Shown here: positions 5,373 through 62,869 of the stretch, piece by piece
Layout: each line of letters begins with the position of its first letter
Numbering within the stretch: position 1 is the stretch's first letter
Assembly: GCF_003033925.1 (NCBI RefSeq)
Contig: NZ_CP028365.1
Coordinates: 868,001 to 932,000 of the forward strand
Direction: 5' to 3'
DNA: 64,000 bases
From: Tannerella serpentiformis
GTDB lineage: Bacteria > Bacteroidota > Bacteroidia > Bacteroidales > Tannerellaceae
Notes under the pieces: model-generated
The model's database searches: none
What the model was told of the DNA's origin: nothing
What the model saw: only the letters and a program-made list of their open reading frames with translations
Program-made: the position numbers and the translations under genes

Positions 5373-5960
5373 GTTTCTTTCCTGAATGCGCTATCCAAAA
5401 GCCTGTACTTTCTGTCTTTTCTATAAACATACTATCTAAATACATTAAACCGTCGTTTCGACCATAAACGGGATGTCGAAAATCCTTACACCCCTGTTTA
5501 TATCGCAAAATCAGTATCTCAAACGCTTGATCAGCTTATTCACATCATAAGCATTGGCTCAAAAAACCTCTCTTCCCCGTTTACGATCAAAACCTGCGAT
5601 CCAAAAAAGTATTTTACCTTGATTATGTCATATTCGGAGGCAAAAATAGCGCTTATCCGTAAACCGCAAACTAAAACGATATATTTTTCTATAGTGATAT
5701 TGTTCATGGTCTAAACAGTACTTCAAACACACTTCGTATATCATCCATATTATCGAAGATATATATACGTATTTCGAATATCTATCTCTATCAAAAACAG
5801 ATAGAAAAGTATATTTTACATGCTATTTTTAGAACATACAATAGGTAAATCTATTTCTATAGCCTGTCTATAATCAGGAATAGAAGGAATACTATTTATA
5901 GTCCTTGTTCGTATCACAAACAGAATGTCCAAATTATTTTCATAGCCGTTCATAAACGAA
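5373..5960. repeat. Decayed AT-rich tandem array, period about 41-42 bp
   Basis: The gene-free stretch 5321-6115 is much AT-richer than its surroundings. Reading it in rows starting at 5373, 5414, 5455, 5496, about 5536, 5579 and 5621 shows a degenerate unit beginning with GTTTnnnTC, then an A-rich part and TATC(C/T)AAAA. Rows at about 5863, 5903 and 5946 look related. The middle part is too diverged to align by eye. No convincing gene is seen. Confidence 0.45.
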
Positions 5961-5964
5961 ACAA

Positions 5965-5998
5965 CCCTCGTCCACGGCATGCAAAGCGTGGCGAGGGG
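5965..5998 (-). terminator. Terminator after the ATP-grasp gene
   Basis: On the minus strand CCCTCGCCACG pairs with CGTGGACGAGGG around a small loop and is followed by TTGTTTCGTTT. It lies about 115 bases after the stop of the ATP-grasp gene and would end the DUF349/ATP-grasp transcript. Confidence 0.7.
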
Positions 5999-6115
5999 TA
6001 TTCCGAGGGTTTGAGCGGACAGGGGATTAGCGGCGACGTGTTCGCTGGAGAGCCGACGCGGCTGGGCAAAGGCGGCGAAGCCTTCGGCGGCACTTTGGCG
6101 CGGCCGAGGGAGGCG

Positions 6116-11786: not shown

Positions 11787-11834
11787 GCGCTGCCTGATCC
11801 TGCCTGTCTGTTGCCTCAATATTTACCGGGCTCC

Positions 11835-12093
11835 GATTTACGGTAAATCAGCCCCAAGCAGGCTTGCATGGCCCGATATACAGTATATCAGCTTCAAACA
11901 GGCTTGCATGGCTCCGATATACAGTATATCAAGCCCAAACAGGCTTGCATAGCTCCGATATACAGTATATCAGCCCCGAGCAGGCTTGCATAGCTCCGAT
12001 ATACAGTATATCAGCCCCGAGCAGGCTTGCATAGCTTCGATATACAGTATATCAGCCCCGAGCAGGCTTGCATGGACCGATATACAGTATATC
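11835..12093. repeat. Seven-copy 41-bp array with 15-bp palindrome
   Basis: Seven units with palindromes starting at 11835, 11875, 11916, 11957, 11998, 12039 and 12079. Six carry the perfect palindrome GATATACAGTATATC; the first is a diverged GATTTACGGTAAATC. The rest of the unit reads roughly AGCCCCGAGCAGGCTTGCAT. It fills most of the spacer between the convergent kdsA and pnp genes. Confidence 0.95.
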
Positions 12094-12113
12094 AAGCGCC
12101 GTCGTCTCCCCCC

Positions 12114-12166: not shown

Positions 12167-12190
12167 CATGCGATCGACAGTCGGCGCGGC

Positions 12191-19562: not shown

Positions 19563-20040
19563 TTCGGAAAACACGGCCGTATTTTGATGGATAACGTGTA
19601 TCCGGTTCGGAAAACACGGCCGTATTTTGATGGATAACGCGTACCCGGTTCGAAAAACACATTCGTATTTCGATGGATAACGTGTACCGGGTACGGAAAA
19701 CATGTCCGTATCCCTAACCGAAACACATACCCCGTTCGAAAAACGTATTCGTATTTTGATGTACGGCATGTAACGCGTGTAGGGGCGTATTGCATACGCC
19801 CCACGAACGCCGCCCATAGGTGGCGAAAACATGTCCGTATCCCCAACCGAAATATGTACCCCGTTCGGAAAACGTATTCGTATTTCGATGTATGGCATGT
19901 AACACGTGTAGGGGCGTATTGCATACGCCCTACAAACGCCGCCCATAGGTGGCGAAAACATGTCCGTATCCCTAACCGAAACATATTCCCGATTCGGAAA
20001 ACATATCCATATACCTAACCGTCGCCCCCAAAAACCACCC
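19563..20040. repeat. Repeat field on a 43-bp period
   Basis: It begins with 43-bp tandem units (CGGAAAACACGGCCGTATTT then GATGGATAACGTGTATCCGG). A longer composite follows, containing the palindromic module GGGGCGTATTGCATACGCCC; its copies at 19779 and 19908 are 129 bp apart, exactly three 43-bp steps. Reading frames on the minus strand through it are by-products of the repetition. Confidence 0.9.
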
Positions 20041-20164: not shown

Positions 20165-20315
20165 ATGACAATACGGCAGGTATTTTGAACTACCGAGGGG
20201 TATTACATGAAAATACGGCAGGTATTTTCAACTCCGGAGTGGTAGGGACTGAAAATACGGCAGGTATTTTCAACTCCTGAGCCTCGGTAGTTCAAAATAC
20301 CTGCCGTATTGTCAT
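20165..20315. repeat. 42-bp repeats closed by a 34-bp perfect inverted repeat
   Basis: ATACGGCAGGTATTTT occurs at 20171, 20213 and 20255 (42 bp apart), each followed by a variant of GAACTACCGAGG or CAACTCCGGAG. The 34 bases at 20165-20198 are repeated in perfect inverted form at 20282-20315, so the block can fold into a long stem. The bases to 20620 hold further looser copies of ATACGG motifs and no gene. Confidence 0.9.
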
Positions 20316-21277: not shown

Positions 21278-22331
21278 CGGGTCGCTCCGCGCGCTCGTGA
21301 TCCGCTTCCGCCGGGTCGGCGACGCCGTCTTGGCGGTTGCCGCGTGCAGCTCCCTGAAGCGCTCCTTTCCCGATATACGTGTGGATTTCGTACTCAACGA
21401 GGCCATCGCTCCCCTTTTCGAGGGTCATCCGGACATCGATCGCGTGGTCACGTTTACCGATACGGACAATGCGAACCCATGGCGGTACGTCCGGCGTGTC
21501 TTCGACGTCATGCGCAAGACACGTTACGACATCCTGATCGACATGCGCGCTACCCCGCGGACGTTGCTCTTCAGCCTCTTCTCCCTCCGTACCCCTTATC
21601 GCATCGGGACGCGCAAGCCCTACAGTCGCCTCCTCCATAACTATCGCGTAGCCGACCGCATCGACCCCTCGCTCGACATGGTGCAGCGCGACTTGCTCCT
21701 GCTCTCGCCCCTCGAGCGACTCGGGCCGTTGCGCTTAGATCCCACGTTCCGCCTCTACGTCTCCGACAAGGATCGGGCTACCTACCGCGCTTATATGGAG
21801 GGCAAAGGGGTCGATTTCACGAAGCCCATCGTGCTGGCGGCTGTTGCAACACGCATCGAGGGCAAAGGCTGGGAGATGGAGCGTATGGTCGGCGTGCTCC
21901 GACACGTAATCGACACCTTCCACCCCCAGATCATCCTGAACCATTCCGGCTACCGCGAGCTGGAGATCAGTCTCATGCTTTACGAGCGCATGGACTACGA
22001 CCCGCATATCCTTCCCGAGATCGAGGCCACAACGCTACGCGAACTGCGCGCCCTGACCTCGCTCTGCGACTTCTTCTTTGGTAACGAGGGCGGCCCCCGG
22101 CACATCGCCCAGGCGCTCGACACCCCCTCGTACGCCATCTATCCCCCGGGCATCAGTCGGCGGCTATGGCTGCCCGGCGACAGTCCGCGACACCGTGGCA
22201 TCAGCCCGGACGACATCGCCCCCCCCTCCCCCACCGCTACCCGTGCCGAGCGCTTCGACCTGGTGACAGTCGACCGCGTCTGGTCCGACCTCGAACCCAT
22301 GATGCGGGAATATCTGGGCTACGCCCAGTAG
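21258..22331 (+). CDS. Glycosyltransferase family 9 (heptosyltransferase-like)
   Basis: A 357-residue GT-B enzyme of the ADP-heptose:LPS heptosyltransferase family. It begins RALVIRFRRVGDAVLAVAACSSLKRSFPD, the usual first Rossmann strand and loop, and ends with the FFFGNEGGPRHIAQALDTPSYAIY region where the nucleotide-sugar site with G-N/T-x-G-x-x-H is found. It starts inside the DUF4254 gene. Likely role: adding a sugar to LPS core or another surface glycan; donor and acceptor are not readable. Confidence 0.88.
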   Translation: MARKKGDGSLRALVIRFRRVGDAVLAVAACSSLKRSFPDIRVDFVLNEAIAPLFEGHPDIDRVVTFTDTDNANPWRYVRRVFDVMRKTRYDILIDMRATPRTLLFSLFSLRTPYRIGTRKPYSRLLHNYRVADRIDPSLDMVQRDLLLLSPLERLGPLRLDPTFRLYVSDKDRATYRAYMEGKGVDFTKPIVLAAVATRIEGKGWEMERMVGVLRHVIDTFHPQIILNHSGYRELEISLMLYERMDYDPHILPEIEATTLRELRALTSLCDFFFGNEGGPRHIAQALDTPSYAIYPPGISRRLWLPGDSPRHRGISPDDIAPPSPTATRAERFDLVTVDRVWSDLEPMMREYLGYAQ

Positions 22332-23396
22332 CATCCGGCCTCTGGCCGGGGTAGTGGGGGCTGCGCCCCGGTAGTTACGCGCCCTTGGCGCGGGTAGTCA
22401 AGGGCTACGCCCAGTAGCATCCGGCCTCTAGCCGGGGTAGTAGGGGCTGCGCCCCGGTAGTTACGCGCCCTTGGCACGGGTAGTCAAGGGCTACGCCCGG
22501 TAGCTTCCGGCCTCTGGCCGGGGTAGTAGGGGCTGCGCCCCGGTAGTTACGCGCCGTTGGCGCGGGTAGTCAAGGGCTACGCCCGGTAGCTTCCGGCCTC
22601 TGGCCGGGGTAGTAGGGGCTGCGCCCCGGTAGTTACGCGCCGTTGGCACGGGTAGTCAAGGGCTACGCCCGGTAGCTTCCGGCCTCTGGCCGGGGTAGTA
22701 GGGGCTGCGCCCCGGTAGTTACGCGCCGTTGGCGCGGGTAGTCAAGGGCTACGCCCGGTAGCTTCCGGCCTCTGGCCGGTGTAGTAGGGGCTGCGCCCCG
22801 GTAGTTACGCGCCGTTGGCGCGGGTAGTTAGAAGTAGTTTAATGTAGCTTCTACCTACTGACGTCTCCACTATACGCGCCGCAAGGCGCATAACTACCGA
22901 CCGAAGGCCGTAATCCCTGCGCCGCAAGGCGCATAACTACCGGCCGAAGGCCGCACTACCCGCACCGCAAGGCGCATCACTACCGGCCGAAGGCCGTACT
23001 ACCTGCGCCGTAAGGCGCATAACTACCGGCCGAAGGCCGAACTCCTCGCGCCGCAAGGTGCATCACTACCGGCCGAAGGCCATACTCCCTGCGCCGCAAA
23101 GCGCATAACTACCGGCCGAAGGCCGTAATCCCTGCGCCGCAAGGCGCATCACTACCGGCCGAAGGCCGTAATCCCTGCGCCGCAAGGCGCATCACTACCG
23201 GCCGAAGGCCGTAATCCCTGCGCCGCAAGGCGCATCACTACCGGCAGAAGGCCGTAATCCCCGCGCCGCAAGGCGCATAACTACCGGCCGAAGGCCGTAA
23301 TCCCCGCGCCGTAAGGCGCATAACTACCGGCCGAATGCCGTAATCCCCGCGCCGCAAGGCGCATCACTACCGGCCGAAGGCCATACTACCTATTTT
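22332..23396. repeat. Bipartite array of short GC hairpins (1.06 kb)
   Basis: The whole spacer is a chain of small hairpins joined by GGTAGTTA linkers. Left arm (22332-22830): units of 86 bp with four hairpins each (GGCCTCTGGCC, GGGGCTGCGCCCC, GCGCCGTTGGCGC, GGGCTACGCCC). Centre (about 22825-22880): GGGTAGTTAGAAGTAG followed by TTCTACC. Right arm (22880-23396): 43-bp units with two hairpins (GCGCCGCAAGGCGC and GGCCGAAGGCC), with the linker reversed (TAACTACC). The two arms therefore point in opposite directions. No coding region is supported. Confidence 0.95.
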
Positions 23397-24206: not shown

Positions 24207-25670
24207 CCCCCACCGCCCCACCTCCCAAAAATCCCCGCCCCTCCGGTCGAGAGATCCCATCGGTATTTCGAAGGATCGCACGTATCCGGTTGGGGAATCG
24301 CATCGGTATTTCGAAGAATCGCACGTATCCAGTTGGAGAATCGCATCGGTATTTCGAAGGATCGCACATACCCGGTTGGGGCATTGCATCGGTATTTCGA
24401 AGGATCGCACGTACCCGGTCGTAGGGGCGTATCGCATATACCCCACAGACGGCCCCGAAGGGGACGAAAACAGGATAGTTTTTTGAAGGGCCACACGTAT
24501 CCAGTCGTAGGGGCGTATCGCATACGCCCCACAAGCGTCCCCAAAGGGGACGAAAACAGGACAGTTTTTTGAACCCTCACACGTACCCAGTCGTAGGATC
24601 GCATCGGTATTTCGAAGAATCGCACGTACCCATCCGTAGGGGCGCAAAAGAATACGCCCACCAGATGGCCCCAAGGGGGACGAATACAGATCCTTTTTTT
24701 AAACCCTCGCACGTACCCAGTTGGAGAATTGCATCAGTATTTCGAAGGATCACATGTACCCAGTTGTAGGGGCGTATCGAATACGCCCCACAGTCGGCCC
24801 CGAAGGGGACGAAAACGGGATAGTTTTTTGAAGGGCCGCACATACCCGGTCGTAGGGGCGTATTGCATACGCCCCACAGACGGCCCCGAAGGGGGACGAA
24901 AACAGAACAGTTTTTCGAAGGGCAGCACGTACCCGGTTGGGGAATTGCATCGGCATTTTGAAGGATTGCATGTACCCAGTCGTAGGGGCGTATTGAATAC
25001 GCCCCACAAGCGGCCCCGAAGGGGACGAAAATGGGATAGTTTTTCGAAGGGCCGCACGTACCCGGTTGGGAAATTGCATCGGTATTTTGAAGAATTGCAC
25101 GTATCCAGTTGTAGAGGCGTATTGAATACGCCCCATAGGCGGCCCCGAGGGGGACAAAAACGGGACAGTTTTTCGAAGGGCCGCACGTACCCAGTTGGGG
25201 AATAGCTTCGGTATTTCGAAGGATTGCACATACCCAGTTGTAGGGGCGTATCGAATACGCCCCACAAGCGACCCCGAAGGGGACGGAAACGGGACAGTTT
25301 TTCGAAGGGCCGCACGTACCCAGTTGGGGAATAGCTTCGGTATTTCGAAGGATTGCACGTACCCAGTCGTAGGGGCGTATTGAATACGCCCCACAAGCGG
25401 CCCCGAAGGGGACGAAAACGGGACAGTTTTTTGAAGGGCAGCACATACCCGGTCGTAGGGGCGTATCGCATACGCTCCACAGACGGCCCCAAGGGGGACG
25501 AAAACGAGATAGTTTTTTGGAGGGCCGCACGTACCCGATTGTAGGGGCGTATTGCATACGCCCCACAGACGGCCCCGAAGGGGACGAAAACGGGACAGTT
25601 TTCGCATCCGTTGGCGGTGTTTAGTTGGGCGTATGCAATACGCCCCTACCCTACCGGCTGACAAGGATTC
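24207..25670. repeat. Large composite repeat field on a strict 43-bp lattice
   Basis: Two module types alternate. Module B (43 bp) contains TCGGTATTTCGAAGGAT and CGCACGTACCCGGT. Module A (86 bp) contains GTAGGGGCGTATTGCATACG, CGGCCCCGAAGGGGACGAAA and GACAGTTTTTTGAAGGGC. Module A begins at 24421, 24507, 24636, 24766, 24852, 24982, 25111, 25240, 25369, 25455 and 25541; the intervals are 86 or 129-130 bp. A final copy near 25625-25650 is inverted. The many minus-strand reading frames are by-products. Confidence 0.95.
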
Positions 25671-25711
25671 AATGAACAGACACGCATTTGCAACCTCTAA
25701 TAGACAATCCT

Positions 25712-26012
25712 AAGGATAATGTTTTCGGAAAGCCTACTTTCTGGAGATGAGTGTAAGGATGACATTTTCGGAGAATCTGCTTTCTAAAGACAAGACTAAG
25801 GATAACGTTTTTGGAGATTCTACCTTCTGAAGAGGAGAGTAAGGATAACATTTTCGGAGATCCTACTTTCCGAAGATGAGAGTAAGGATAACTTTTTTGG
25901 AAAGCCTACTTTCTGGAGATGATAGTAAGGATAATGTTTTCGGATAATCTACCTCCAGAAGACAAGACTAAGGATAACATTTTTGGAAAACATACTTTCT
26001 GGAGATGAGACA
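25712..26012. repeat. Seven-copy 43-bp AT-rich array
   Basis: AAGGAT starts at 25712, 25755, 25798, 25841, 25884, 25927 and 25970, exactly 43 bp apart. The unit is roughly AAGGATAACATTTTCGGAGA plus TCCTACTTTCCGAAGATGAG, with moderate divergence between copies. An eighth, badly decayed unit may follow. The spacer to 26126 holds nothing else clear. Confidence 0.95.
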
Positions 26013-26126
26013 AAGAGGTAGATTTTTTAAGGGGTACTTTTCTGGTGAGAGAGTAAGGGATACGTCCGTCTATAAGCAAGCTCGCAGGGCGTCCAGTCGC
26101 CCTCTCCATGTCCGACGACAGACGCG

Positions 26127-29747: not shown

Positions 29748-29929
29748 GGTTCTTGGATGAAAACGGGCGCAAGGTAGGCCTTTTGCCACTCGTCGACAAT
29801 CACCTTTCCCGTTCAGGGTGAAAAACTTCTCCCGCGTTTTTTCCGTATGCAACTGGCTGGAGCATGTCACCTGCCGATATTCTTCTTTCTCCATTGACCA
29901 TAAGATTAACTCCTTCCGTAATTTACCGC

Positions 29930-30475
29930 CATGCAATTGATTTACGATCAATGACTTTGGTAATTGATTGCCCTGCAAATGATTTCCGATCAATGAACGT
30001 AGTAATTTATTATCATGCAAATGCTTTGCGATTAATGAATACGATAATTTATCGCCATGCAAATGATTTGTGAGAAATGACTTTGGTAATTGATTACCAT
30101 GCAAATGCTTTGCGATCAATGAACGCAGTAATTTATTATCATGCAAATGATTTCCGATCAATGACTGAGATAATTTATCGCCATGCAAATGCTTTGCGAT
30201 CAATGAACGCGGTAATTGATCTCCATGCAATTGCTTTGCGAGAAATTATTGCGGCAATTTATCGCCATGCAACTGATTTGTGAGAAATGACTGCGGTAAT
30301 TGATCGCCATGCAAATGCTTTGCGATCAATGAACGCGGTAATTGATCTCCATGCAAATGCTTTATGAGAAATGACTGCAGTAATTGGTCTCCATGCAAAT
30401 GATTTGCGATCAATGAACGCGGCAATTTATTACCATGCAAATGATTTGCGAGAAATGACCGACGAAGGAATTCCT
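29930..30475. repeat. Thirteen-copy 42-bp array
   Basis: The core CATGCAA (one copy CCTGCAA) repeats from 29930 to 30434 in exact 42-bp steps, giving 13 copies. The unit is roughly GCGGTAATTGATCTCCATGC then AAATGCTTTGCGATCAATGA. Because 42 is divisible by three, the minus strand reads as 14-residue repeats (HLHGDQLPRSLIAK-like). I see no start signal that would make this a real protein. Confidence 0.95.
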
Positions 30476-38977: not shown

Positions 38978-39023
38978 TCCCTCCCCAACGCATAGGCATC
39001 CTTCCCCCTTCCGCGGCTCATTT

Positions 39024-39191
39024 CGGAATGTCCACCTACATGAAAGAGGTAAACGCGGTTGATCTCGGAATGCCCATCAACATGGAACTGCCTCCAGCGA
39101 CTGATTTCGGAATGCCCATCAACTTGGAAGAGATAAACGTGGCTGATCTCGGAATGCCCATCAACATGGAAGAGGTAAACGCGGCGTGTTT
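39024..39191. repeat. Four-copy 42-bp array
   Basis: CGGAATG starts at 39024, 39066, 39108 and 39150, exactly 42 bp apart. The unit reads roughly CGGAATGCCCATCAACATGG then AAGAGGTAAACGCGGCTGAT. It has no sequence in common with the 42-bp array that follows at 39243. Confidence 0.93.
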
Positions 39192-39242: not shown

Positions 39243-39640
39243 TACGCCGTATGGCTCTACAAAAAGAAGCTGTTTCTCACTTCATACACGGTATAAGTTC
39301 ACCGAAAGACGCTGTTTTGCACCTCATACGCGGTATGATCTAAGAAATAGAGTCTGTTTTGCATATCATACGCCGTCAAACTCCCTCGAGATCCTCTTTT
39401 GAGGGCACTTTACGGCGTACACATCACGAAAAAGAGGCTATTTCCAGACCTATACCAGGTATGAATAGAGAAACAGAGGCCGTTTGGGGACTCTTACCAA
39501 GTATGAATAACGAAAAAGAGCCTCTTTACGGACTCATACGGGTGCTGAATCACGCGAAAGAGGCTTTTTCGAGCATACGACCTCGTACGCTTACCGAAAA
39601 GCGACAATTTATTTCATTTGTAGGCGCTAACGATCGGGAA
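39243..39640. repeat. Diverged 42-bp array upstream of DUF6261-like paralogue 3
   Basis: Units carry TACGCCGTATGA-like and AAAAGAGGCTGTTT-like halves; anchors at 39243, 39285, 39327 and later 39459 and 39501 keep the 42-bp step. About nine or ten units, more diverged in the middle (a stretch CTCGAGATCCTCTTTTGAGG near 39385). It ends some 60 bases before the DUF6261-like start. Confidence 0.85.
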
Positions 39641-43084: not shown

Positions 43085-43440
43085 AACGGGGCTGAAGCCC
43101 CGGGTAGTTATGCGCCTTGCGGCGCTGTAGTTACGGGCTTCGCCCGGGTAGTTATGCAGCCTGTCGGCCTCGGTAGTTACGGGCTTCGCCCGGGTAGTTA
43201 TGCGCCTTGCGGCGCGGTAGTTACGGGCTTCGCCCGGGTAGTCAGAGGGTAGTTACATGGTAGAATCTACTTCTAACTACCCGTAACTACCCGGGGCTTT
43301 AGCCCCGTACTACCACGGCCGCAAGGCCGCATTACTACCCGGCGCGAAGCGCCATAACTACCGGGCGTATGCAATACGCCTACTACCCGGCCGTTAGGCC
43401 GATAACTACCGCGGCCGCAAGGCCGCATAACTACTTTATA
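43085..43440. repeat. Second bipartite GC-hairpin array
   Basis: It is built like the array at 22332-23396. Left arm: GGTAGTTA linkers with GCGCCTTGCGGCGC, GGGCTTCGCCC (a stable UUCG loop when transcribed) and GCCTGTCGGC, with units of about 44-46 bp. Centre near 43250-43290: GTAGAATCTACTTCTAACTACCC, which in reverse reads GGGTAGTTAGAAGTAG as in the first array. Right arm: TAACTACC linkers with GGGGCTTTAGCCCC, GGCCGCAAGGCC and GGCGCGAAGCGCC. It fills the spacer between two co-directional genes. Confidence 0.93.
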
Positions 43441-44316: not shown

Positions 44317-44339
44317 TAGCCCCAAGCCATCGGGGCCGT

Positions 44340-44850
44340 TTACCCCTTGCACGCCGTGCAAACACCGAAATGACCCTCATTTTACCCCTTGCACGCTGTG
44401 CGAGCACCAAAATGACCCTCATTTTACCCCTTGCACGCCGTGCAAACACCGAAATGACCCTCATTTTACCCCTTGCATGCCGTGCAAACACTGAAATGAC
44501 CCTCATTTTACCCCTTGCACGCCGTGCAAACACCGAAATGACCCTCATTTTGCCCCTTGCATGCCGTGCGAGCACCAAAATGACCCTCATTTTGCCTCTT
44601 GCATGCCGTGCGAGCACCGAAATGACCCTCATTTTACCCCTTGCATGCCGTGCGAGTACCAAAATGACCCTCATTTTGCCCCTTGCATGCCGTGCGAGTA
44701 CTGAAATGACCCTCATTTTGCCTCTTGCATGCCGTGCGAGTACCAAAATGACCCTCATTTTGCCCCTTGCATGCCGTGCAAACACCGAAATGACCCTCAT
44801 TTTACCCCTTGCATGCCGTGCGAGTACCAAAATGACCCTCGATGGCCTGC
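44340..44850. repeat. Twelve-copy 42-bp array upstream of dxs
   Basis: TGACCCTC starts at 44371 and repeats in exact 42-bp steps to 44833, 12 copies. The unit is roughly AAATGACCCTCATTTTACCC then CTTGCATGCCGTGCGAGTAC. Both strands stay open over the array because 42 is a multiple of three; I do not regard these frames as genes. Confidence 0.96.
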
Positions 44851-48198: not shown

Positions 48199-48362
48199 AT
48201 ATAAAGGGTGATACAGGGGTATAGGATGGTGGATAGTCAACGCGCTGATGCCCTCCTTATCGATTGTCATGTCTAAAAAGCATCAGAGAGCACCTCATGG
48301 TTAGTTGTTTTATTCAACTAAACTTGCAGCCCTGTTTTATTAATCCATTAACGCAACACACC

Positions 48363-49832: not shown

Positions 49833-50317
49833 CAAACGTGAGTTCGGCGTAAGAATGAGGTCTCTTATCTTATCTCTGGAGCATGTCTTTGATTGAGCGC
49901 TGTAACGGCCAAAGTGCTTCTGGAAACGCTTGCAACACTGTTGCAAGTCTCACGAAAAACTTTTTGGCGTTTGCAGCAATGCTGCAAATGCCTCGAAAAA
50001 CTTTTTGGAGTTTGCAGGAACGCTGCAAGTGTCCCGAAAAACTTTTTGGAGTTTGCAGAAACGCTGCAAGTGCCTCGAAAAACTTTTTGGAGTTTGCAGG
50101 AACGCTGCAAGTGCCTCGAAAAACTTTTCGGCGTTTGCAGGAATGCTGCAAGTGCCTCGAAAAACTTTTCGGAGTTTGCAGAAATGCTGCAAGTGCCCCG
50201 AAAAACTTTTTGGCGTTTGCAGGAATGCTGCAAGCATTTCCAGAAATGTTTTAGCCCATCGCGAGTCATCCGTAGAACCTCTCTGCTGGCTTTGTTCTTA
50301 CGTCAAACTCACGCTAA
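49833..50317. mobile_element. MITE-like segment with IS982-like ends carrying a 41-bp array
   Basis: The left end ACGTGAGTTCGGCGTAAG (about 49836-49853) and the right end CTTACGTCAAACTCACGC (50297-50314) are inverted to each other and match the terminal repeats of the IS982 copy at 52029-53058 with two or three changes. The roughly 485-bp interior has no transposase, only a 41-bp tandem array. It looks like a non-autonomous element moved or once moved by IS982. Confidence 0.55.
49953..50239. repeat. Seven-copy 41-bp array
   Basis: CGAAAAAC starts at 49953, 49994, 50035, 50076, 50117, 50158 and 50199, exactly 41 bp apart. The unit is roughly CGAAAAACTTTTTGGAGTTT then GCAGGAACGCTGCAAGTGCC, with an inner GCAGGAACGCTGC near-palindrome. 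Confidence 0.96.
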
Positions 50318-50318
50318 C

Positions 50319-50388
50319 AAGAAGCTGTTTCGAATTTATTGAATGATTATTCTGAGGAGCTGCCGAAATCGATTCGAGACAGCTTCTA
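50319..50388. repeat. Imperfect inverted repeat before trkH
   Basis: AGAAGCTGTTTCGAAT (about 50319) and ATTCGAGACAGCTTCT (to about 50388) are inverted to each other with one mismatch. A partial copy, AAGAAGCTGTTTGGGATTTA, occurs at about 51934. It may be a transcription terminator or a small mobile repeat. Confidence 0.55.
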
Positions 50389-50406
50389 AATCCCATCCCC
50401 CCATCT

Positions 50407-52030: not shown

Positions 52031-53058
52031 AACGCGAGTTCGACCTAAGCAACCGGCAGGAAAGAGGGATGTACAAACTCCTCGGCGGTGTTGATGGAGG
52101 GCTTTTTGTCGAAAAAGGAGAAAGCAGCCAAAGCCGATAACAGATTGATGATGAAGTTCGAGAAGCATCGATGACGAGTATGTTCTATCTGACAGATATT
52201 CTTCAGTTGATCATTAACTGTCTTGATCAGAGATCTTTTCCGGAGCACAATCTTGTCATGTTGGAACATCAAGGTATTCTTCACAGACCCTTTTTCAGAC
52301 GCGTGATGAGGTGGACTCCGTCAATGAAGAGCTGTTCGAAGAGGTCTTTCGAGATATAGCCCCTGTCTCCGAAGAGCTTCCCGAAGATCCGTTTGTGGAA
52401 GTCCATGTGTTTCAAGGGGGGTCTGTCGTCTACATTGCCCGGAGTCAGAAGAAAACCCGAGCAGTTCCCCCTTGTCATTAATGATCAAGTGGAGTTTGAA
52501 TCCATAGAACCACCCCAGCGTACTTTTCCCTTTCCGGGCAAATTCCTTGAAGGTTTTATGCTGCTTTTCTCTTTTGATATGGCAGCTTCGGATGGGAGTA
52601 GAATCGATAAAAGATATGCCGGCACATTGCCCCAAAGCCTTCATTTTTAGGAAGACAGCAAGCGGGATACAGACTTTTCGCTCTAACTCTACAAATCGGT
52701 TGTAGGACACGGTATGGGGGAAATCAGACTTCATGTGTGATCGGACGAAGAGATAAAAATGCTTCAGATCCCGAAAAGAGGAGAAGTGGAAAAGGATGAG
52801 AATCGTCATCACCTCACTACCGGACATAGTGAATTTGCGGTTCCTCCTTTTCTTTGGGGCCCCTTCTTCCAAGGAATGACTTTTGATTACGGCGTCGTAT
52901 TCTTTCAAGAATTCGTCGACAAGATAGTAGATCTCTACCGTTTTATTGGTGGAAATCATTGTTGGATTTGCTCTTTGTTTTCAACGCATTAAAGATACAA
53001 ACCTCACTCTTGACTCCCACCTCTTTTTGCCCCTTTTCTTAGGTCGAACTCACGTTAT
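52029..53058 (-). mobile_element. IS982 family insertion sequence, decayed
   Basis: The ends are TAACGCGAGTTCGACCTAAG (52030-52049) and its near-complement CTTAGGTCGAACTCACGTTA (53038-53057). The length of about 1030 bp is normal for IS982. It contains a transposase reading frame on the minus strand broken by at least two frameshifts, so it cannot move by itself. Related ends at 79-95 and at 49836/50297 show that the family has been active in this region. Confidence 0.88.
52045..52959 (-). pseudogene. IS982 family transposase, frameshifted
   Basis: Three overlapping frame pieces give one IS982 transposase: 52959 to about 52455 (MISTNKTVEIYYLVDEFLKE, then SGSEVMTILILFHFS, FIDSTPIRSCHIKRE, and GFKLHLIINDKGELLGF), then about 52470-52290 in a second frame (LTPGNVDDRPPL and GDRGYISKDLFEQLFIDGV), then 52284-52045 in a third (KIVLRKRSLIKTVNDQLKN, IEHTRHRCFSNFIINLLSAL). 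The catalytic aspartates and the final glutamate region are spread over these pieces. Two single-base indels are the simplest cause. Confidence 0.88.
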
Positions 53059-54111: not shown

Positions 54112-55178
54112 TCAGCGCACACGCAGCTTCGTTTCGTTACCAGGTAGTGGCCGTTCAGCTTTGGTGGCCGGCGGCTCTAGAACGGAAACCTGCTTACCGA
54201 TCGCAGCTTCGTCTTCTTTCGCCTCGTTCTTCTTTAATGAGAGCGCGATCTTCCGATCCAGCTCCGCCGCGTTCCTCTTCAGCGTACGTAGCTCGTCCTC
54301 TTTCCGCCAGACGCCTGAGGCGGCTGCCTCAAAGACCGGAATCTGCTCCTTCGTCTTGGCCAACTCCTTCTCGTGCGTCTCGATGACTTTCGGGATCCGC
54401 TCTAGTGCGTTCAGGAAGTTTTGGCAAGCGAGCTTCGGATCAGCGGCCAGACGACCATTGTTATAGGTATAGTAAATGCCGCTGCAGCCTTGCACGAAAA
54501 AGCGGTTGACGGAGCAATCGAAAAGATCCTTCGCCGTGCTTTCCGTCTTCACCATGACCGGGAAACCATAGATCTCACCGATCTTGTTGTACTCGCCTTC
54601 GGTGCGCGCCTTCTCCGCAATCTCCTGCAAGCGCGCAGCCACAGCCTTAACGTCCGCACCATCCGGCACACCTTTTACCGACAGCTTATTGACCGGCACA
54701 CCGTCGGCGTTACGCTTTACTTGGCTCTCAAAATGTGCTCGATCCGCCTGGGCTTCCCGGATCTTGTCTGAATGGAAAACGACAGAGCCCTTGATCTCCT
54801 CGAGCTTGGCTGCGGCCGTGTCGCGCTCTTTAAGGAAGCCCTTTCGCTCCGATTCCAAAGTGACGATCTTCTTCTCCAGCTTCGCTTTCTCGAGTAGATC
54901 AGTGTTGCCCGACAGCACGGCCACATACTCCGAGAAGTTCATGCCGCTGTCCTCGTCCATCGAACCTTCGTCGATGGAGCGACTGCCGAGCGTGTTCGTC
55001 TTGAGTTGGTTGATGAAGAGCTGTTTGTTGTGCAGCAAGTTGAACTTGTAACTGTCGAGCGAGCGCTCCACGGCATAGATGATCACGTCCACTTTGTTAT
55101 CGGCAAACTGTTTGGCCACCTCGTTGCCTTTGCGGACGGCACGCCCGTTGCGCTGCTCGAGATCAGATGGGCGATCGG
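54112..55178 (-). pseudogene. C-terminal remnant of an ICE-type helicase/DNA methylase
   Basis: About 355 codons remain. The fragment begins inside helicase motif VI (PDRPSDLEQRNGRAVRKGN, with the arginine fingers) and continues with the typical YAVERSLDSYKFNLLHNKQLFINQLK segment, a coiled coil and a C-terminal domain. The family is the very large SNF2-type helicase/adenine methylase carried by Bacteroidetes integrative elements. The N-terminal 1400 or so residues are missing: the upstream side is occupied by a group II intron and beyond it lies a different gene. Confidence 0.75.
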
Positions 55179-57636
55179 GTAGGTCAAGGGCATTACTACC
55201 CTCTTCCCCCCTAAGAACCGTACATGAGAGTTTCCCCTCATACGGCTCAAGCTTTTCTAAATCCCTATTCTTATATAGAGACCGGCTCATATTACTTGTT
55301 GTTGTCATTGGATTTGTGGGATAATTTGAAACATTCATCATGAACCAATAGATTGCACTTTCGCCCATTTTGGACGGTAGGCATCACATTCCATGCCTTG
55401 TGCGTGTCTATCGGCTCACCGCATATTGGACATTTTCTTCCTTGCTTTTCCCATAGGTAAAGCAAAGACTTACGTCCTTTCAGTGAAACAAGCATTTTCG
55501 ACTTCATTCTTTGGTTGAAGTATAAACGACAGTCCACGTCAAACGGATTCATATCCCCTTTTATCTGCGTATATTGCAGAAAAGGGAATGAGGAAGCCAA
55601 AGTCAACAATGTGAGTTGGTCTTCCTTTCCATTTGACTTCTTGAACTTGGCAGCAAAAGTCCAGCTGTTACCTCGGATATTATGCCAGTAGCGGTCTTTA
55701 ATCCATCGCTTCCCTTTCTTGGAGTGGCGACGTTTAGCCCATTGCCATAGGGAGAGGAATATCTGATGGTCAACTCTGTGAAAGGAGTCACGCGTTGCGC
55801 CATGCTGATAGTAAGCTCCCCATCCTCGGATTTTAGCATTCAACATTCTGATTAAGGACTCCTGCCTGCACCCCTTGTTGCCTTTTATTACCTTACGGAT
55901 ATTCTCCATAAAGCGTTTTTCGGCTTTCTTGGTAGGCTTGGTCAATATTTCATTGCTGTATTTGCGGATATTGAAACCGAGAAAATCGAAACCGTCACAA
56001 ATATTGGTTATCACCGTCTTTTCTTCTGATAAGGTCAGACCTCTTTCAGACATAAAGTCGGCTACCAATGGCTTTATTTCCTTTTCAAGTGTTTCACGGT
56101 TCTCGCAGGTAATTATAAAGTCATCAGCGTAGCGGACAAGATTCACCATTGGCGAATATAACTTGCCTTTGATTCTAACTCGTTTATATTTCTCTGCAAG
56201 GACTTTCTGCAATCCGTCCAATGTCATATTGGCAAGCGTGGGAGAGATAATGCCACCTTGTGGTGTTCCCTCCTCTGTCGGGAACATCTGTTTGTTGAAG
56301 ATATAGCCGCATTTCAGCCACTTACGGAGCATTGCCTTATCCATAGGGATGTTGGCAAGCAGCCATTCATGGCTGATATGGTCGAAGCACCCCTTTATGT
56401 CACCCTCCAGAATCCATTCGGGAGAATAGCCTTTCCGGAGAATGTTATGACATTGCTGAACAGCATCCATACAGCGGCGTTCCTTGCGGAAACCGTATGA
56501 ACGTGTGTCGGCTGTTGTTTCCGACACTGGTTCCAATGCCATGAGGTAGAGTGCTTGCATGGCTCTGTCTTTCATTGTCGGTATTCCCAACGGTCGCAGT
56601 TTGCCATTACTCTTTTTGATGTGGACTCTTCTCAATGGCTTCGGCTGATAGCCTCTGCGTTTGAGTTCGCTTATCGCTTGTGTTTTTGCTTCGGGTTTCT
56701 CCCATGTTTCCATGTCCACCCCGGGGGTGTTGCCACCTCCGTTGGAAGTAACTCTCTTTACGGCTAAGGCTTTTGCGTAAAAAGAGTGGGTCAGCGTCCA
56801 CTGCAAGGCTTTCACCTTGCCCGTTCTGCCTTCCTTCTGAGCCTTTACAATACGCGCTTGTAGCTTTCTGACAGCCAACTCCGCTTCAGTCCAGTCTATT
56901 CTGTCCCAAAGTGTTTGCTGATTGTCAGCAGGCGCACACGATGTCTTGTTGTCGTTCATTTGCTTTCCTCCTTTTAAAAGTTCTAAAAGTTAATTGTAAA
57001 GAATCACCATTTGATGACATTCGGTTTGTTTGTCTACCGAGTGTCATCACAGAAGTTTGCCCACTTTCGTGTCGGATGATGTTACCCAAATCAACCCGTG
57101 ATGTCGGCTCAATCCGTATCCGCTCCATTACAGAACGGCATTCGCTTTTTCTGCTGTCTTATACCTGCACACCGTTCGGCTTCCATTGCTGTCAGCTCAC
57201 CCGTCATTTTGACATGACGGGTGATATACAGGCTTACCATGTTCCACATAGATAACTAACGGATAGGTTAGGTTCTGTCTCATCCTCCGTCGGTGCTTAT
57301 ATCCGTGTAATCCTACCTTGGAGAGGATTAACCGACCGCTTCCCTTTTGGGGATAGTGTACCAGTATCTTACACTCTTTCGTGACGTTACGAAGTTTACT
57401 GACAGTTCGCTTACGCTAACCATACTATCCAGTCTCGCCACTCTACGGTATGATACTAACCGTGCTTGACTTTCCCTCACGGTTCTGTCTTGTCTTACGA
57501 AAGTGTACTTTGTCCCGACCGCTTAATACAACGTTAAGGTGCATTGGTCGGTAGGCTACCGCTGACGGAACAGCGGGTTAAAGCTGATACCCATAAGTAT
57601 CATTTCAACAATTATCTATGCGACTTCATGTCGCAC
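55179..57636 (-). mobile_element. Group II intron
   Basis: On the minus strand the element begins GTGCGACATGAAGTCGCA (from 57636), the GUGYG start with the usual first stem. It ends after domain V (GAGCCGTATGAGGGGAAACT to CATGTACGGTTCT, about 55210-55250) and domain VI, at a likely ...GACCTAC end near 55179. The 2.46-kb length suits a ribozyme with its open reading frame in domain IV. The end position may be off by a few bases. Confidence 0.85.
55292..56959 (-). CDS. ltrA: Group II intron reverse transcriptase/maturase
   Basis: A 555-residue intron-encoded protein. The RT domain has RRVHIKKSNGKLRPLGIP, ILEGDIKGCFDHISHEWL, GTPQGGIISPTLANM and the active-site box YADD (277-280). The maturase domain X follows (SLIRMLNAKIRGWGAYYQHGA-type segment). 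The C-terminus has a CPICG knuckle (from about 510) and HDECF, resembling an HNH endonuclease, but the usual HH pair after the tryptophan is absent (AWNVMPTV), so the endonuclease is probably inactive. Confidence 0.95.
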   Translation of the reverse strand: MNDNKTSCAPADNQQTLWDRIDWTEAELAVRKLQARIVKAQKEGRTGKVKALQWTLTHSFYAKALAVKRVTSNGGGNTPGVDMETWEKPEAKTQAISELKRRGYQPKPLRRVHIKKSNGKLRPLGIPTMKDRAMQALYLMALEPVSETTADTRSYGFRKERRCMDAVQQCHNILRKGYSPEWILEGDIKGCFDHISHEWLLANIPMDKAMLRKWLKCGYIFNKQMFPTEEGTPQGGIISPTLANMTLDGLQKVLAEKYKRVRIKGKLYSPMVNLVRYADDFIITCENRETLEKEIKPLVADFMSERGLTLSEEKTVITNICDGFDFLGFNIRKYSNEILTKPTKKAEKRFMENIRKVIKGNKGCRQESLIRMLNAKIRGWGAYYQHGATRDSFHRVDHQIFLSLWQWAKRRHSKKGKRWIKDRYWHNIRGNSWTFAAKFKKSNGKEDQLTLLTLASSFPFLQYTQIKGDMNPFDVDCRLYFNQRMKSKMLVSLKGRKSLLYLWEKQGRKCPICGEPIDTHKAWNVMPTVQNGRKCNLLVHDECFKLSHKSNDNNK

Positions 57637-60264: not shown

Positions 60265-60351
60265 CGGAAGGAGGGGGATTCGAACCCCCGGTACGGTAAC
60301 CCGTACGACAGTTTAGCAAACTGTTGGTTTCAGCCACTCACCCATCCTTCC
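60265..60351 (-). tRNA. tRNA-Ser (anticodon GCU)
   Basis: On the minus strand the acceptor stem GGAAGGA/TCCTTCC, the D region GGGTGAGTGGCTGAAACC, the anticodon arm CAGTTTGCTAAACTG (anticodon GCT), a long class II variable arm (CGTACGGGTTACCGTAC) and GGTTCGAATCC in the T arm are all present. The long variable arm and the anticodon identify serine for AGC/AGU codons. CCA is not encoded directly. The integrase-side flank is the 3' end, a usual attachment site. Confidence 0.96.
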
Positions 60352-60426
60352 TTACTGACTCAGCAGTGTGGCTTGTTTCAAAAAGACGGGGCAAAGATAG
60401 ACCCGTTTTCCATTTACACAAATGTC

Positions 60427-61023
60427 TCACTTCAGCCCCATCTCTTCAAACATCCGCCGATATTTCTCGGCCTTCTTCTCCACCGAAAGCGGATAGGCGC
60501 GCGATGACGAGGGCATACGATAGAGTCGGAAATGCCGATCGTCTAACGCAGCGTCCGTCCATTCGCCCGTCTTCGGAGGTGGTGAGGGTGCCGAGACGAG
60601 TGTCAATAGCGTGTCGAGCGCCTTTTGACCCGTTACGGCGATGGCGCGGCAGGACGGAAGCAGAGCCAGGGTCTGCCGAAGGTCGATCGGGCGAAGTACC
60701 TCGAGGAACTTGTCTGAGGCGTTGCCTTGGAGGCGACTGACCTCCATCGCTGTGTCCCAGATGGCGATGCCACGCTCGGTGAGAAAACGGCGGAGTTCGG
60801 CCTCGCGAAACGCATGTCCATCGTCGGTAAGGAAGTGCGACTTGTCGCCGAAGAAGACTAAGCCGAAGATGCGCCACATGTCGTTCTGAAAATTGGGATA
60901 AAAGAAGTCCATCCGCCAACGCTCACGCGGCGGAGGAAAGCTGCCCAGCATCAGCAGCCGGGCACCCTCCGGTGCAAAAAGCGTCAGGGGATGGACTTCC
61001 CGTGTGCGTTCCTCCACGGTCAT
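60427..61023 (-). CDS. Uracil-DNA glycosylase superfamily protein
   Basis: A 198-residue protein with the UDG fold. MLGSFPPPRERWRMDFFYPNFQNDMWRIFG (in parts) resembles the substrate-binding and water-activating loop of the mismatch-specific (MUG/TDG-like) group, and the C-terminal RMPSSSRAYP matches the intercalation loop. It probably removes uracil or a similar lesion from DNA. It starts inside the stop of the proline dehydrogenase gene (ATGA overlap). Confidence 0.82.
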   Translation of the reverse strand: MTVEERTREVHPLTLFAPEGARLLMLGSFPPPRERWRMDFFYPNFQNDMWRIFGLVFFGDKSHFLTDDGHAFREAELRRFLTERGIAIWDTAMEVSRLQGNASDKFLEVLRPIDLRQTLALLPSCRAIAVTGQKALDTLLTLVSAPSPPPKTGEWTDAALDDRHFRLYRMPSSSRAYPLSVEKKAEKYRRMFEEMGLK

Positions 61024-62192
61024 TTCGCCCGCTTGCGGCGGTCGGTTTCGAGGTTAAGCATGTTCAGCTCGCGGGTGGTCTGTCCGGCCACGGAGGTGTT
61101 CTCCTCTGCGCGGCGGAGGAGGTACGGAAGCACGTCGCGCACCTTGGCGTAGGGTACGTATTTGGTCACGTTGTAACCCGCGTGGGCGAGGTTGAAGGAG
61201 ATGTTGTCGCTCATGCCGAGCAGCTGGGCGAAAAAGATGCGCGGATCGTCATGACGGAGACCTTTCTTCTCGATCAGCTTGGCCAGGCGATAGTTGCTCT
61301 CCTCGTTGTGTGTGCCCATGAAAAGCTCGAAGTGGTCGAGGTTTTCGATGACGAACTCCACGCCTTGGTTGTAGTTATCGTCGGTGGCCTGCTTGTTTTT
61401 GCAGATCGGGTCGGGGTAGCCCATGGCGGCGGCACGGGCGCGCTCGTCCTCCATGTAGGCACCGCGGACGAACTTGATGCCTGCCGTATAACCCTTCTCC
61501 TTGGCGTCCTCGAGGATGCGGCGGAGGTATGGCATGCGATCGTGGCGATACATCTGGAGGGTGGCGAAGACGATGGCGCGGCGCTTATTGAACATACGCA
61601 TGGCCTCGTCCGTCATGGCGTCGATGGAATCCTGGAAGCAGTAATCTTCGGCATCGACGAGGATGCGGACATCGTTATCGTAAGCGCGTTGGCAGAGGGC
61701 GAGGAAACGCTGGTGATAGGCCTCGTGAGCGGCTTTCTCGTCGGCCGTCAGTTGGTCGGGATGTTCGGAGGCTTTGGCGAGCAGGGCATCGGTGGTGAGG
61801 GTGGAGGGCTTGAAGACGGCGTAGGCGATGTCCGGGTTGCCCTTTGCATTGTCCACCGAGCGGAGCGTCTCCTTCATCGTGGCCTCGATGCCCTCGGGGG
61901 TCTGCTCACTTTCGGCCGAATAGTCGAGTGTCGACTTGACGCCGAAGCGCCTCAGCCCAGCCACGGTGCGGGCACAGCCTTCGATCGTTTCTCCGCCCAC
62001 AAATTGCTTGTAGAGCGTCGGTTTCACGATCCACCCCAGCGGGAAGTGGATCCCCAGCGCAATGTTCGTCCCAAGCTTTGCCAACTTCACCAACCCGGGG
62101 TGTTTGATGGTGCCAAACAGCAGGCGGGCGTTTCTCAGTTCACTGTCTGATTTCGCCTCAAAGGCGATCTGAGTATCATTAAAATCTAACAT
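61020..62192 (-). CDS. Proline dehydrogenase family protein
   Basis: A 390-residue TIM-barrel flavoenzyme that oxidises proline to pyrroline-5-carboxylate. Segments: STLDYSAE, VFKPSTL, ILVDAEDYCFQDSID, GIKFVRGAYMEDER, GTHNEESN and QLLGMSDNISFNLAHAGYNVTKYVPYAKV (in parts), the last with the proline-binding region. It is the single-function type. The ATG at 62192 gives MLDFNDTQIAFEAKSD, typical of Bacteroidetes; the frame upstream to 62270 is not supported. Confidence 0.9.
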   Translation of the reverse strand: MLDFNDTQIAFEAKSDSELRNARLLFGTIKHPGLVKLAKLGTNIALGIHFPLGWIVKPTLYKQFVGGETIEGCARTVAGLRRFGVKSTLDYSAESEQTPEGIEATMKETLRSVDNAKGNPDIAYAVFKPSTLTTDALLAKASEHPDQLTADEKAAHEAYHQRFLALCQRAYDNDVRILVDAEDYCFQDSIDAMTDEAMRMFNKRRAIVFATLQMYRHDRMPYLRRILEDAKEKGYTAGIKFVRGAYMEDERARAAAMGYPDPICKNKQATDDNYNQGVEFVIENLDHFELFMGTHNEESNYRLAKLIEKKGLRHDDPRIFFAQLLGMSDNISFNLAHAGYNVTKYVPYAKVRDVLPYLLRRAEENTSVAGQTTRELNMLNLETDRRKRAK

Positions 62193-62869
62193 ATAGGTAC
62201 TTGCTAAGCGATTTGAAATCGGGCCGAATGTATTCCGTTTTCCATAACGCCACCCTCCCCCCCGTAACAATTTTCTCCCGAGGCGGCCCTGCGCGCTTAT
62301 GATCTACAATCAAACGGGGTGAAAAACGACCGGCTTATATACCCGCAAAGCCTCTGAGAAAGGCTTGCCAGACGCCCCCTCCGGCGTGTGATCCGAGTCG
62401 GAGACTCCGAAAAGGCTGCGCAAGGCTTGCATGATCATTTCGGAGACTGTGAAAAGGCCGAGCAGGTGTTGCATAGTCACGCCGCACACTGTGAAAGGGC
62501 TGTGCAGGTGTTGCATAGTCCCGCCACACACTGTGAAAGGGCTGTGCAAGGGTTGCATAGTCACGCCGCACACTGTGAAAGGGCCACGCAAGCGTTGCAT
62601 GGTCGTTTCACACACTGTGAAAGGGCTGTGCAGGTGTTGCATGGTCATTTCACACACTGTGAAAGGGCCGCGCAAGCGTTGCATGATCGTTTCGCACACT
62701 TTGCCGGTGCCACGCAGGTGTTGCACACTCGTTTCGCACACTGCGACGGCCTGTGCAAGGGATGAAAGAGACCTTTCAGGATGGCTCCCAAACGGCTTCG
62801 CAGCGTCCGGGAGATCATTTGAGGCTGAATGCATATCGCTATCTATGCACCCACTAACAGATATACAGT
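62193..62869. repeat. Spacer with a 42-bp array between divergent genes
   Basis: From about 62401 to 62760 units of 42 bp repeat: CACACTG starts at 62485, 62527 and 62569 and the step continues on both sides (about eight or nine units). The unit is roughly CACACTGTGAAAGGGCTGTG then CAGGTGTTGCATAGTCACGC. The remainder (62193-62400 and 62761-62869) has no clear element except a short CGCCCCCTCCGGCG hairpin near 62372. Confidence 0.93.

What the first reader, a model, noticed from the sequence alone, without database searches (positions are those of the whole stretch)
5373..62760. At least thirteen intergenic arrays, mostly unrelated in sequence, share one 41-43 bp period
Measured from fixed anchors, the arrays step by 41 bp (11835-12093; 49953-50239), 42 bp (20171-20255; 29930-30434; 39024-39150; 39243-39501; 44371-44833; 62485-62569) and 43 bp (19563-20040; 24240-25650; 25712-25970; right arm of 22332-23396, with 86 bp in its left arm). 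The hairpin array at 43.1-43.4 kb is near 44 bp, and the decayed field at 5373 near 41 bp. Between the simple arrays I find no common sequence. Ordinary slippage would give arbitrary periods. A shared length close to four turns of B-DNA suggests a common generating mechanism or a DNA-bound protein that fixes the spacing on one helix face.
Basis: partly seen in the sequence, partly recalled or inferred. Interest (0 to 1): 0.92.

Follow-up and report, generated by a model that had tools for sequence, protein, structure and literature searches.

The report
Palindrome ladders with fixed 41-42-bp step
Many short DNA repeat arrays between the genes of this mouth bacterium have mostly unrelated sequences yet share one repeat length of 41 or 42 letters, and each repeat tends to hold two mirror-symmetric sites exactly half a repeat apart, which suggests that geometry rather than sequence is being kept.

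Summary
Observation confirmed, and it holds genome-wide in a sample. The window lies in a 3.01-Mb Tannerella chromosome. In the window plus 58 systematic 20-kb stretches (1.224 Mb) TRF gives 245 arrays at score 100 or more; of 218 intergenic ones 62 have period 41 and 74 period 42; shuffled DNA gives none. They form about 80 sequence clusters. What they share is geometry: the strongest palindrome of a unit has a second dyad exactly half a unit away (20.5 or 21 bp; z 9.7 over 55 clusters). Array ends prefer palindrome edges. Arm changes inside arrays are compensatory. Mismatches show no G-U bias, so the symmetry looks DNA-level. Unit number differs by whole units between two pairs of paralogous loci. 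Two families searched are absent from 30 other genomes of the genus, mostly drafts. A minority sit in MITEs whose ends match an IS in the window. Other Bacteroidales loci show a 22-bp peak. Best reading: ladders of dyads two helical turns apart, length kept by a sequence-tolerant dimeric DNA-binding protein (inferred, 0.4) or by a palindrome-copying generator (0.3). Closest known: P. gingivalis BrickBuilt and 464/PgRS.

The parts
5373..5990 (.). decayed array, residual period 41
   Evidence: lags 41, 82, 123 best (z 6.6, 5.3, 4.3)
11829..12094 (.). array, period 41, 6.5 copies; starts and ends on the palindrome GATWTACRGTAWATC
   Evidence: TRF; units printed; convergent gap between a DAHP synthase gene and a PNPase gene
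19563..20040 (.). array, period 43 with 86 and 129 higher-order forms
   Evidence: TRF; lags; begins right after the ORF ending at 19562
20165..20300 (.). short array, period 42
   Evidence: TRF
22316..23382 (.). hairpin array: left arm period 86, right arm period 43; fills the gap between ORFs ending at 22331 and starting at 23397
   Evidence: TRF, ORFs, lags; same cluster as the array at 43.1 kb
24254..25602 (.). array, period 43 with 86, 129, 216 and 345 higher-order forms
   Evidence: TRF; lags
25696..26058 (.). array, period 43
   Evidence: TRF; lags
29918..30461 (.). array, period 42, 12.9 copies; clusters with L140:15994-16321 and L122:7493-7994
   Evidence: TRF
39012..39185 (.). array, period 42
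   Evidence: TRF
39243..39539 (.). array, period 42, partly decayed
   Evidence: lags; TRF calls only 39426-39539
43099..43434 (.). hairpin array of 23- and 44-48-bp steps between ORFs ending at 43084 and starting at 43445
   Evidence: TRF; lags; ORFs
44339..44840 (.). array, period 42, 12.0 copies, upstream of dxs; relatives at three other places in the genome
   Evidence: TRF; units
49836..50314 (.). MITE with terminal inverted repeats ACGTGAGTTCGRYGTA that encloses the next array
   Evidence: trkA-trkH gap of four relatives lacks it
49942..50234 (.). array, period 41, 7.1 copies; family with 48 matches at 24 places in this genome
   Evidence: TRF
52032..53055 (.). IS with the same kind of ends as the MITE; ORF 52321-52959 (-) matches the first half of DDE_Tnp_1_3
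62409..62757 (.). array, period 42, 8 copies, divergent gap
   Evidence: TRF; units; clusters with L135:2647-2971 and L164:1541-1969

Best explanation
These are palindrome ladders: intergenic minisatellites that read roughly P1-P2-P1-...-P1, where P1 is a 15-17-bp palindrome and P2 a weaker one, with dyad axes 20.5 or 21 bp apart, two turns of B-DNA, so that the full unit is 41 or 42 bp (shown as a statistical property of the class, not for every array). Units are gained and lost whole (shown at two paralogous locus pairs) and each array homogenises and drifts on its own, so sequences diverge while geometry stays (inferred). Some families are carried to new sites in MITEs with IS-type ends (shown for a minority). 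What fixes the length is my inference: a symmetric, dimeric DNA-binding protein that tolerates many sequences but needs two-fold sites on one face of the helix at two-turn spacing, so that the arrays act as binding lattices of the nucleoid between genes.
For: Periods 41 and 42 in 136 of 218 intergenic arrays, none in shuffled DNA. A second dyad exactly half a unit from the strongest one: 0.391 complementarity against 0.253 at other offsets, 55 clusters, z 9.7, 0 of 20,000 permutations; by unit length 0.375 at 20.5 bp and 0.433 at 21.0 bp; unchanged when units with similar halves are left out (z 8.8-8.9). Array ends on palindrome edges, 51 of 128 against 24.7 expected. Compensatory changes at the main dyad inside arrays, 142 against 84. 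No GT over AC bias in transcript sense (332 to 320). Arrays in all gap types, including 28 of 85 divergent gaps. Length held more tightly than a crude neutral model allows: 68 of 80 clusters at 41-42 against 44-61% expected given 39-44.
Against: No binding protein found; HU-HIG proteins are not expanded here (3 matches, 1-12 in other genus members). Per-turn values differ: 10.4 bp here, 11.0 for the 22-bp class elsewhere. No 10-11-bp autocorrelation inside units. Complementarity between the two dyads falls to background, and the second dyad shows no covariation of its own (22 against 19.5). Control axes also exceed their shuffles slightly (174 against 152, maximum 171), so part of the covariation is relatedness. 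Substitution-to-indel ratio inside arrays is ordinary (14.7). Quasi-palindrome correction can make arms covary without selection (established knowledge, recalled).
Confidence: 0.4

Rival explanations
1. A palindrome-templated generator sets the length and there is no function: snap-back or template-switch synthesis (for example on a 41-42-nt dumbbell of two hairpins) makes units of the form X plus its reverse complement, and unequal recombination then expands and homogenises them.
For: It predicts dyads half a unit apart, ends at the palindrome turn-round points, compensatory change without selection, whole-unit copy change and unrelated sequences with one length.
Against: Complementarity in mid-unit is near background (0.42-0.50 at 8-10 bp from the main dyad), which a whole-unit dumbbell does not predict unless it has decayed; no enzyme known to make such circles.
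Confidence: 0.3
2. Common descent: all arrays come from one or a few old repeats; unequal crossing-over keeps the period while the sequence drifts.
For: A small excess of similarity between clusters (66 pairs against 24-35; 9 against 1.3-1.7 at score 14); clusters differ in period mostly by one base; within arrays indels are single bases (224 events, 230 bases).
Against: Most of 2,485 pairs are at background; a crude neutral model gives 44-61% at 41-42, observed 85%; other genera have 22 bp; it does not predict the half-unit dyad.
Confidence: 0.15
3. The arrays are passengers of MITEs, as in BrickBuilt, and their common length comes from the carrier.
For: Inverted flanks in 20 of 173 arrays above the 99% null; MITE ends on both sides of 5 and on one side of 6 of 179 arrays; IS with such ends in the window.
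Against: 168 of 179 arrays lack these ends, and clusters found at many places share little flank.
Confidence: 0.08
4. The arrays work as RNA hairpins in untranslated regions (stability, termination or regulatory RNA).
For: Palindromes could fold as hairpins; [quoted passage not shown]
Against: No GT over AC excess in co-directional gaps (332 to 320; 34 arrays against 36); 28 of 85 divergent gaps hold arrays; no Rfam match to an array of the window at the gathering score. In convergent gaps, where the strand is arbitrary, the count was GT 21 and AC 52, which I cannot interpret.
Confidence: 0.06

Closest known systems
BrickBuilt minisatellite-MITE of Porphyromonas gingivalis (PMC4596501; abstract and passages seen)
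   Same: Tandem repeat without spacers, intergenic, many copies per genome, predicted stem-loops, partly inside a MITE with short inverted ends, whole-unit length difference between strains of the same locus; same order.
   Different: One sequence family with a 23-nt unit and 19 copies in ATCC 33277; here about 80 clusters with a 41-42-bp unit and an estimated 400 arrays, and MITE ends on few of them.
464/PgRS elements and the 41-, 23- and 22-nt repeats of P. gingivalis W83 (as told in passages of PMC4596501)
   Same: 41-nt tandem repeats, unrelated in sequence to the 23-nt ones; the same set of lengths recurs.
   Different: A few families in one species; no shared geometry was described in the passages seen. 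Their sequences were not compared here.
REP/BIME palindromes with RAYT (Y1) transposases (recalled)
   Same: Intergenic palindromes in clusters; this genome has one Y1_Tnp gene with hairpin repeats on both sides.
   Different: REPs share one sequence type per genome; these arrays do not, and the repeats beside the Y1 gene have steps of 29-35 bp.
CRISPR arrays (recalled)
   Same: Regular spacing, partly palindromic repeated element, array begins and ends with it.
   Different: The part between palindromes is itself repeated, not unique (units printed).

Membership tests
Minisatellite / VNTR | tandem units of about 10-100 bp | tested here: met
   TRF
Minisatellite / VNTR | copy number varies by whole units | tested here: met
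   five locus pairs compared: two have homologous flanks on both sides and arrays of 324/242 and 246/372 bp; one pair is identical; two share only 29-38 bp of flank
Minisatellite / VNTR | copy number varies between strains | not testable with these tools
   no second strain held; the one matching viral contig is this genome
BrickBuilt MITE | 23-nt unit | tested here: not met
   41/42 dominate; 23 bp does not occur among 218 intergenic arrays at score 100 or more
BrickBuilt MITE | leader and tail with terminal inverted repeats | tested here: not met
   as a class not met: one MITE end type on both sides of 5 and one side of 6 of 179 arrays; inverted flanks above the null in 20 of 173
BrickBuilt MITE | intergenic position | tested here: met
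   218 of 245 arrays, 149 of 162 at 40-44 bp (own gene caller)
464/PgRS | 41-nt tandem unit | tested here: met
   62 of 218 intergenic arrays have exactly 41
464/PgRS | sequence of the element | not tested
   P. gingivalis element sequence not fetched
REP/BIME with RAYT | one conserved palindrome sequence recognised by the transposase | tested here: not met
   80 clusters
REP/BIME with RAYT | Y1 transposase gene flanked by the repeats | tested here: inconclusive
   one Y1_Tnp match in the genome; hairpin repeats on both sides, and one P-S-P stretch like cluster 9 by eye downstream, but no 41-42 array there
CRISPR | unique spacers between repeats | tested here: not met
   units repeat throughout
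Known structured RNA (Rfam) | match at gathering score | tested here: not met
   three matches in the window: two to the group II intron, one tRNA
Protein-bound DNA lattice | a protein bound to the arrays | not testable with these tools
   needs pull-down or footprinting

The most novel reading that the evidence does not exclude
Bacteroidales keep a class of intergenic satellite DNA in which geometry, not sequence, is conserved: dyads about two helical turns apart (21-22 bp, doubled to 41-42 in this Tannerella), a sequence-free structural code that is read by a nucleoid protein or written by a dedicated palindrome-copying process.
Probability: 0.3. Interest if true: 0.95.

Novelty: new variant of a known kind. 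Interest (0 to 1): 0.8.

Why it matters
Minisatellites are usually treated as locus-specific accidents of slippage. A length rule that holds over dozens of unrelated sequences, with a symmetric half-unit, means that something measures DNA length when these arrays are made or kept. A new nucleoid-binding lattice or a new repeat-making mechanism would follow. It is directly testable, because one genome carries an estimated 400 natural replicates (scaled up) and loci of other Bacteroidales show a related 22-bp class.

Tried and rejected
HU-HIG proteins as the array binder: 3 matches in this genome, 1-12 in other genus members searched, so no expansion. RAYT/REP as the general maker: one Y1 gene, neighbouring repeats with 29-35-bp steps. 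Rfam: only the group II intron and a tRNA in the window. A-tract or 10-11-bp phasing inside units: autocorrelation at lags 10 and 11 is 0.265 and 0.282 against 0.276 expected for 42-bp units, and 0.257 and 0.240 against 0.268 for 41-bp units. Strain comparison through viral contigs: of 23 loci one, L266, matches this genome, at 100% over 13.8 kb to L172, and is therefore the same genome. A preference for convergent gaps: none. A fall in W/S content around dyads rests on 18 clusters and was not used.

Limits. Ten of 22 arrays in called genes have period 41 or 42; 42 bp is 14 codons, so a stop-free array opens a long ORF and may be miscalled; not proved. Gene calls come from my own hexamer caller. 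Dropped before counts: TRF rows under score 100 or under 50 or 70; 23 of 179 arrays not placed in a gap; arrays below a dyad threshold; L008-L009 left out of the Bacteroidales set. At up to 3 mismatches the MITE-end scan gave 39 hits, with 5 in shuffles of 20 of the 59 stretches, so roughly 15 of the 39 may be chance; the paired ones have at most 2 mismatches. The neutral length model is crude: one-base indels only, ratio taken from divergence to a consensus. Most other genomes are drafts, which lose repeats (arrays lie at or near contig starts in L177 and L181), so densities there and the absence of families in the genus are lower bounds. E. coli is the only control outside the order.
Full report
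What was checked. The window is bases 868,001-932,000 of a single 3,013,500-bp contig. By the DXS protein the nearest named relatives are two Tannerella forsythia records at 78-79% identity, and 24 of 40 relatives drawn are of the same genus. I take it to be a Tannerella, probably T. serpentiformis; the species name is inference and was not tested. The hairpin array at 43.1-43.4 kb is irregular (23/46/90) rather than 44.

Genome scale. At TRF score 100 or more there are 245 merged arrays: 218 intergenic by my gene caller, 22 in called genes, 5 mixed. Periods among the 218: 41 in 62, 42 in 74, 40 in 7, 43 in 5, 44 in 1; the next value is 22 with 10; values at 81-86 (16), 123-129 (7), 168 (3) and 210 (2) are mostly higher-order forms. 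Ten of the 22 in called genes are 41 or 42. The 162 arrays of 40-44 bp cover 47,534 bases, 3.9% of the sample, and 13.5% of its intergenic DNA; a Markov-shuffled copy gives none. Scaled up, that is about 400 per genome (inference). After masking all arrays of score 50 or more, the best lag of intergenic DNA is still 42, with 84 and 21 among the next four, so decayed arrays seem common; masked coding DNA also has lag 42 second best among codon multiples, which weakens this.

Sequence. One unit per array (179 arrays) gives 80 clusters at a linking score of 16, where 3,000 shuffled comparisons never exceeded 13; 47 arrays are singletons. Between one representative per cluster (71 with 40-42-bp units, 2,485 pairs) there is a small excess of similarity: 66 pairs at score 11 or more against 24 and 35 in two kinds of shuffle, and 9 at 14 or more against 1.7 and 1.3. 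Some clusters are distant cousins, but most pairs are at background.

Geometry. Units hold palindromes: the longest perfect arm averages 6.07 bases against 4.51 in shuffles, and 18 of 71 cluster representatives have a dyad of at least 7 of 8 pairs, 25% against 3.7% in shuffles. Taking the strongest dyad of each unit and asking where a second one lies gives one sharp answer, exactly half a unit away. For 41-bp units (23 clusters) complementarity is 0.375 at an offset of 20.5 bp against a mean of 0.250 over offsets; for 42-bp units (28 clusters) it is 0.433 at 21.0 bp against 0.263. Over 55 clusters it is 0.391 against 0.253, z 9.7, and none of 20,000 permutations reaches it. The pairs tested do not overlap those used to choose the first dyad, and leaving out units whose two halves resemble each other changes nothing (z 8.8 and 8.9). 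Array ends prefer the outer edges of the palindrome: in 64 arrays of 23 clusters, 51 of 128 ends against 24.7 expected, P about 2e-4 when whole clusters are rotated; both ends in 11 arrays against 2.4. So an array typically reads P1-P2-P1-...-P1.

DNA rather than RNA. In dyads of arrays between co-directional genes, read in transcript direction, mismatches are G-T 332 and A-C 320; arrays with more of one or of the other are 34 and 36, with 12 ties, P 0.90. RNA pairing would favour G-U. In divergent gaps the counts are 78 and 74; in convergent gaps, where the strand is arbitrary, 21 and 52. Arrays occur in 88 of 463 co-directional, 18 of 80 convergent and 28 of 85 divergent gaps. No array of the window matches Rfam at the gathering score.

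Dynamics. Inside arrays, main-dyad pairs changed on both sides that still match number 142 against 84 in shuffles (maximum 98), ratio 1.69; control axes give 174 against 152 (maximum 171), ratio 1.14, and the second dyad 22 against 19.5, no signal. Between members of a cluster the arms change together, for example TTGCGGG..CCCGCAA, TTGCAAC..GTTGCAA and TTTCGGG..CCCGAAA on a common scaffold. Of five locus pairs compared, two have homologous flanks on both sides (90, 96 and 79% in three left-hand pieces and 94% on the right; 93 and 94%) and arrays of 324 against 242 and 246 against 372 bp, differences of about two and exactly three units; one pair is identical throughout; two share only 29-38 bp of flank. 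In 150 arrays there are 3,299 substitutions and 224 indel events, an ordinary ratio of 14.7. A crude neutral model with that ratio leaves 44-61% of lineages at 41-42 among those at 39-44, against 68 of 80 clusters observed.

Spread. The family of the window array at 49942 has 48 matches at 24 places in this genome (place count mine) and none in 30 other genomes of the genus. Another family has 25 matches at 9 places and none in the same number of genomes. Only 12 of those 30 are at least 90% complete with low contamination, and drafts lose repeats. Some arrays travel in a MITE with ends near ACGTGAGTTCGAYGTA: 5 of 179 arrays have it on both sides and 6 on one, in three clusters; its core occurs 58 times in the genome with at most one mismatch, 0 for the reversed control. 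Such ends also border an IS at 52032-53055 whose ORF matches the first half of DDE_Tnp_1_3; that this domain marks the IS982 family is recalled. At 48198-50407 a CitMHS-type transporter gene and the MITE lie between trkA and trkH, whose matches are 2-15 bp apart in two T. forsythia loci, one Parabacteroides and one Tannerella MAG.

Beyond this genome. In 78 loci of other Bacteroidales around dxs (1.44 Mb), 94 arrays score 70 or more, 37 of them at 22 bp and 54 at 21-23, in 24 of the 78 loci; ten of the 54 units have a dyad of 7 of 8 or better, 1.2 expected. A Markov-shuffled copy gives 6 at the looser score of 50, where the real loci give 198; E. coli K-12 gives one array in 200 kb at score 70. 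Part of the 22-bp arrays lie inside ORFs by a crude test (14 of 37). The same-genus sample (G014, taken as T. forsythia because one contig has the length of L008's record, and G016) holds a few arrays at 21, 23, 41, 42 and 83 bp; G018 and G023 hold none at 40-44. Five other order members show no such peak in 484 kb, 13 arrays, so it is not uniform.

Literature. In P. gingivalis a 23-nt minisatellite in a MITE (BrickBuilt), 41-nt repeats in 464/PgRS elements, and 22-, 23- and 41-nt repeats in W83 are told of, the 23- and 41-nt ones as unrelated in sequence (PMC4596501; abstract, and passages). PMC5771137 (passages) annotates BrickBuilt among intergenic repeats. PMC13298647 (passages) treats Tannerella pangenomes; the passages shown do not mention such arrays. 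PMC4060949 (passages) surveys close repeats and palindromes in prokaryotes; the passages shown report no period rule. The ten searches of an open-access library listed no paper whose title or abstract start describes a shared 41-42-bp or 22-bp period; other listed papers were not opened, and most subscription journals are not held.

Interpretation. The anatomy is well supported: palindrome ladders with dyads half a unit apart, conserved in geometry and free in sequence. What fixes the length is not shown. I favour a sequence-tolerant dimeric DNA-binding protein (0.4) over a palindrome-templated generator (0.3), because length is tighter than the neutral model and arrays sit in all kinds of gap; but the generator explains the half-unit symmetry and the palindromic ends about as well. 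Common descent alone, MITE carriage alone and RNA function fit less. The different per-turn values (10.4 here, 11.0 for the 22-bp class) are the main warning against a simple helical-phase story.

Noticed in passing
L010-L087 (78 Bacteroidales loci around dxs): Tandem arrays of unrelated sequence peak at 22 bp (37 of 94 at score 70 or more), many with one palindrome per unit.
   Followed up: partly
window 22316-23382 and 43099-43434: Hairpin arrays fill the space between two genes, from just behind or at one stop codon to just before the next start codon.
   Followed up: no
L118:13790-13980 and L125:9711-9886: Arrays of a 7-bp unit TAGAGGG followed within 20-50 bp by a shorter array of its reverse complement.
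   Followed up: no
L123:18546-18714 and 18946-19071: Two 42-bp arrays that by eye are reverse complements of each other, 231 bp apart.
   Followed up: no
L148:9462-9919 and L161:7618-8075: Identical 458-bp arrays with 600 bp of identical flank on both sides: a recent larger duplication.
   Followed up: no
L228:3882-5558 (G000:C1:1378882-1380558): A Y1_Tnp gene with similar hairpin repeats on both sides and an HU-HIG gene just upstream.
   Followed up: partly
window 55174-57577 (-): Group II intron: both RNA ends match Rfam, with a reverse transcriptase/maturase ORF at 55292-56959.
   Followed up: no
flanks of many arrays, for example L140:8426-8610: Other dispersed repeats next to arrays of different clusters (GTAGGGGCGTATTGCATACGCCCC; GGCCGGGTACC): 52 flanks of 40 arrays join in one cluster.
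   Followed up: partly
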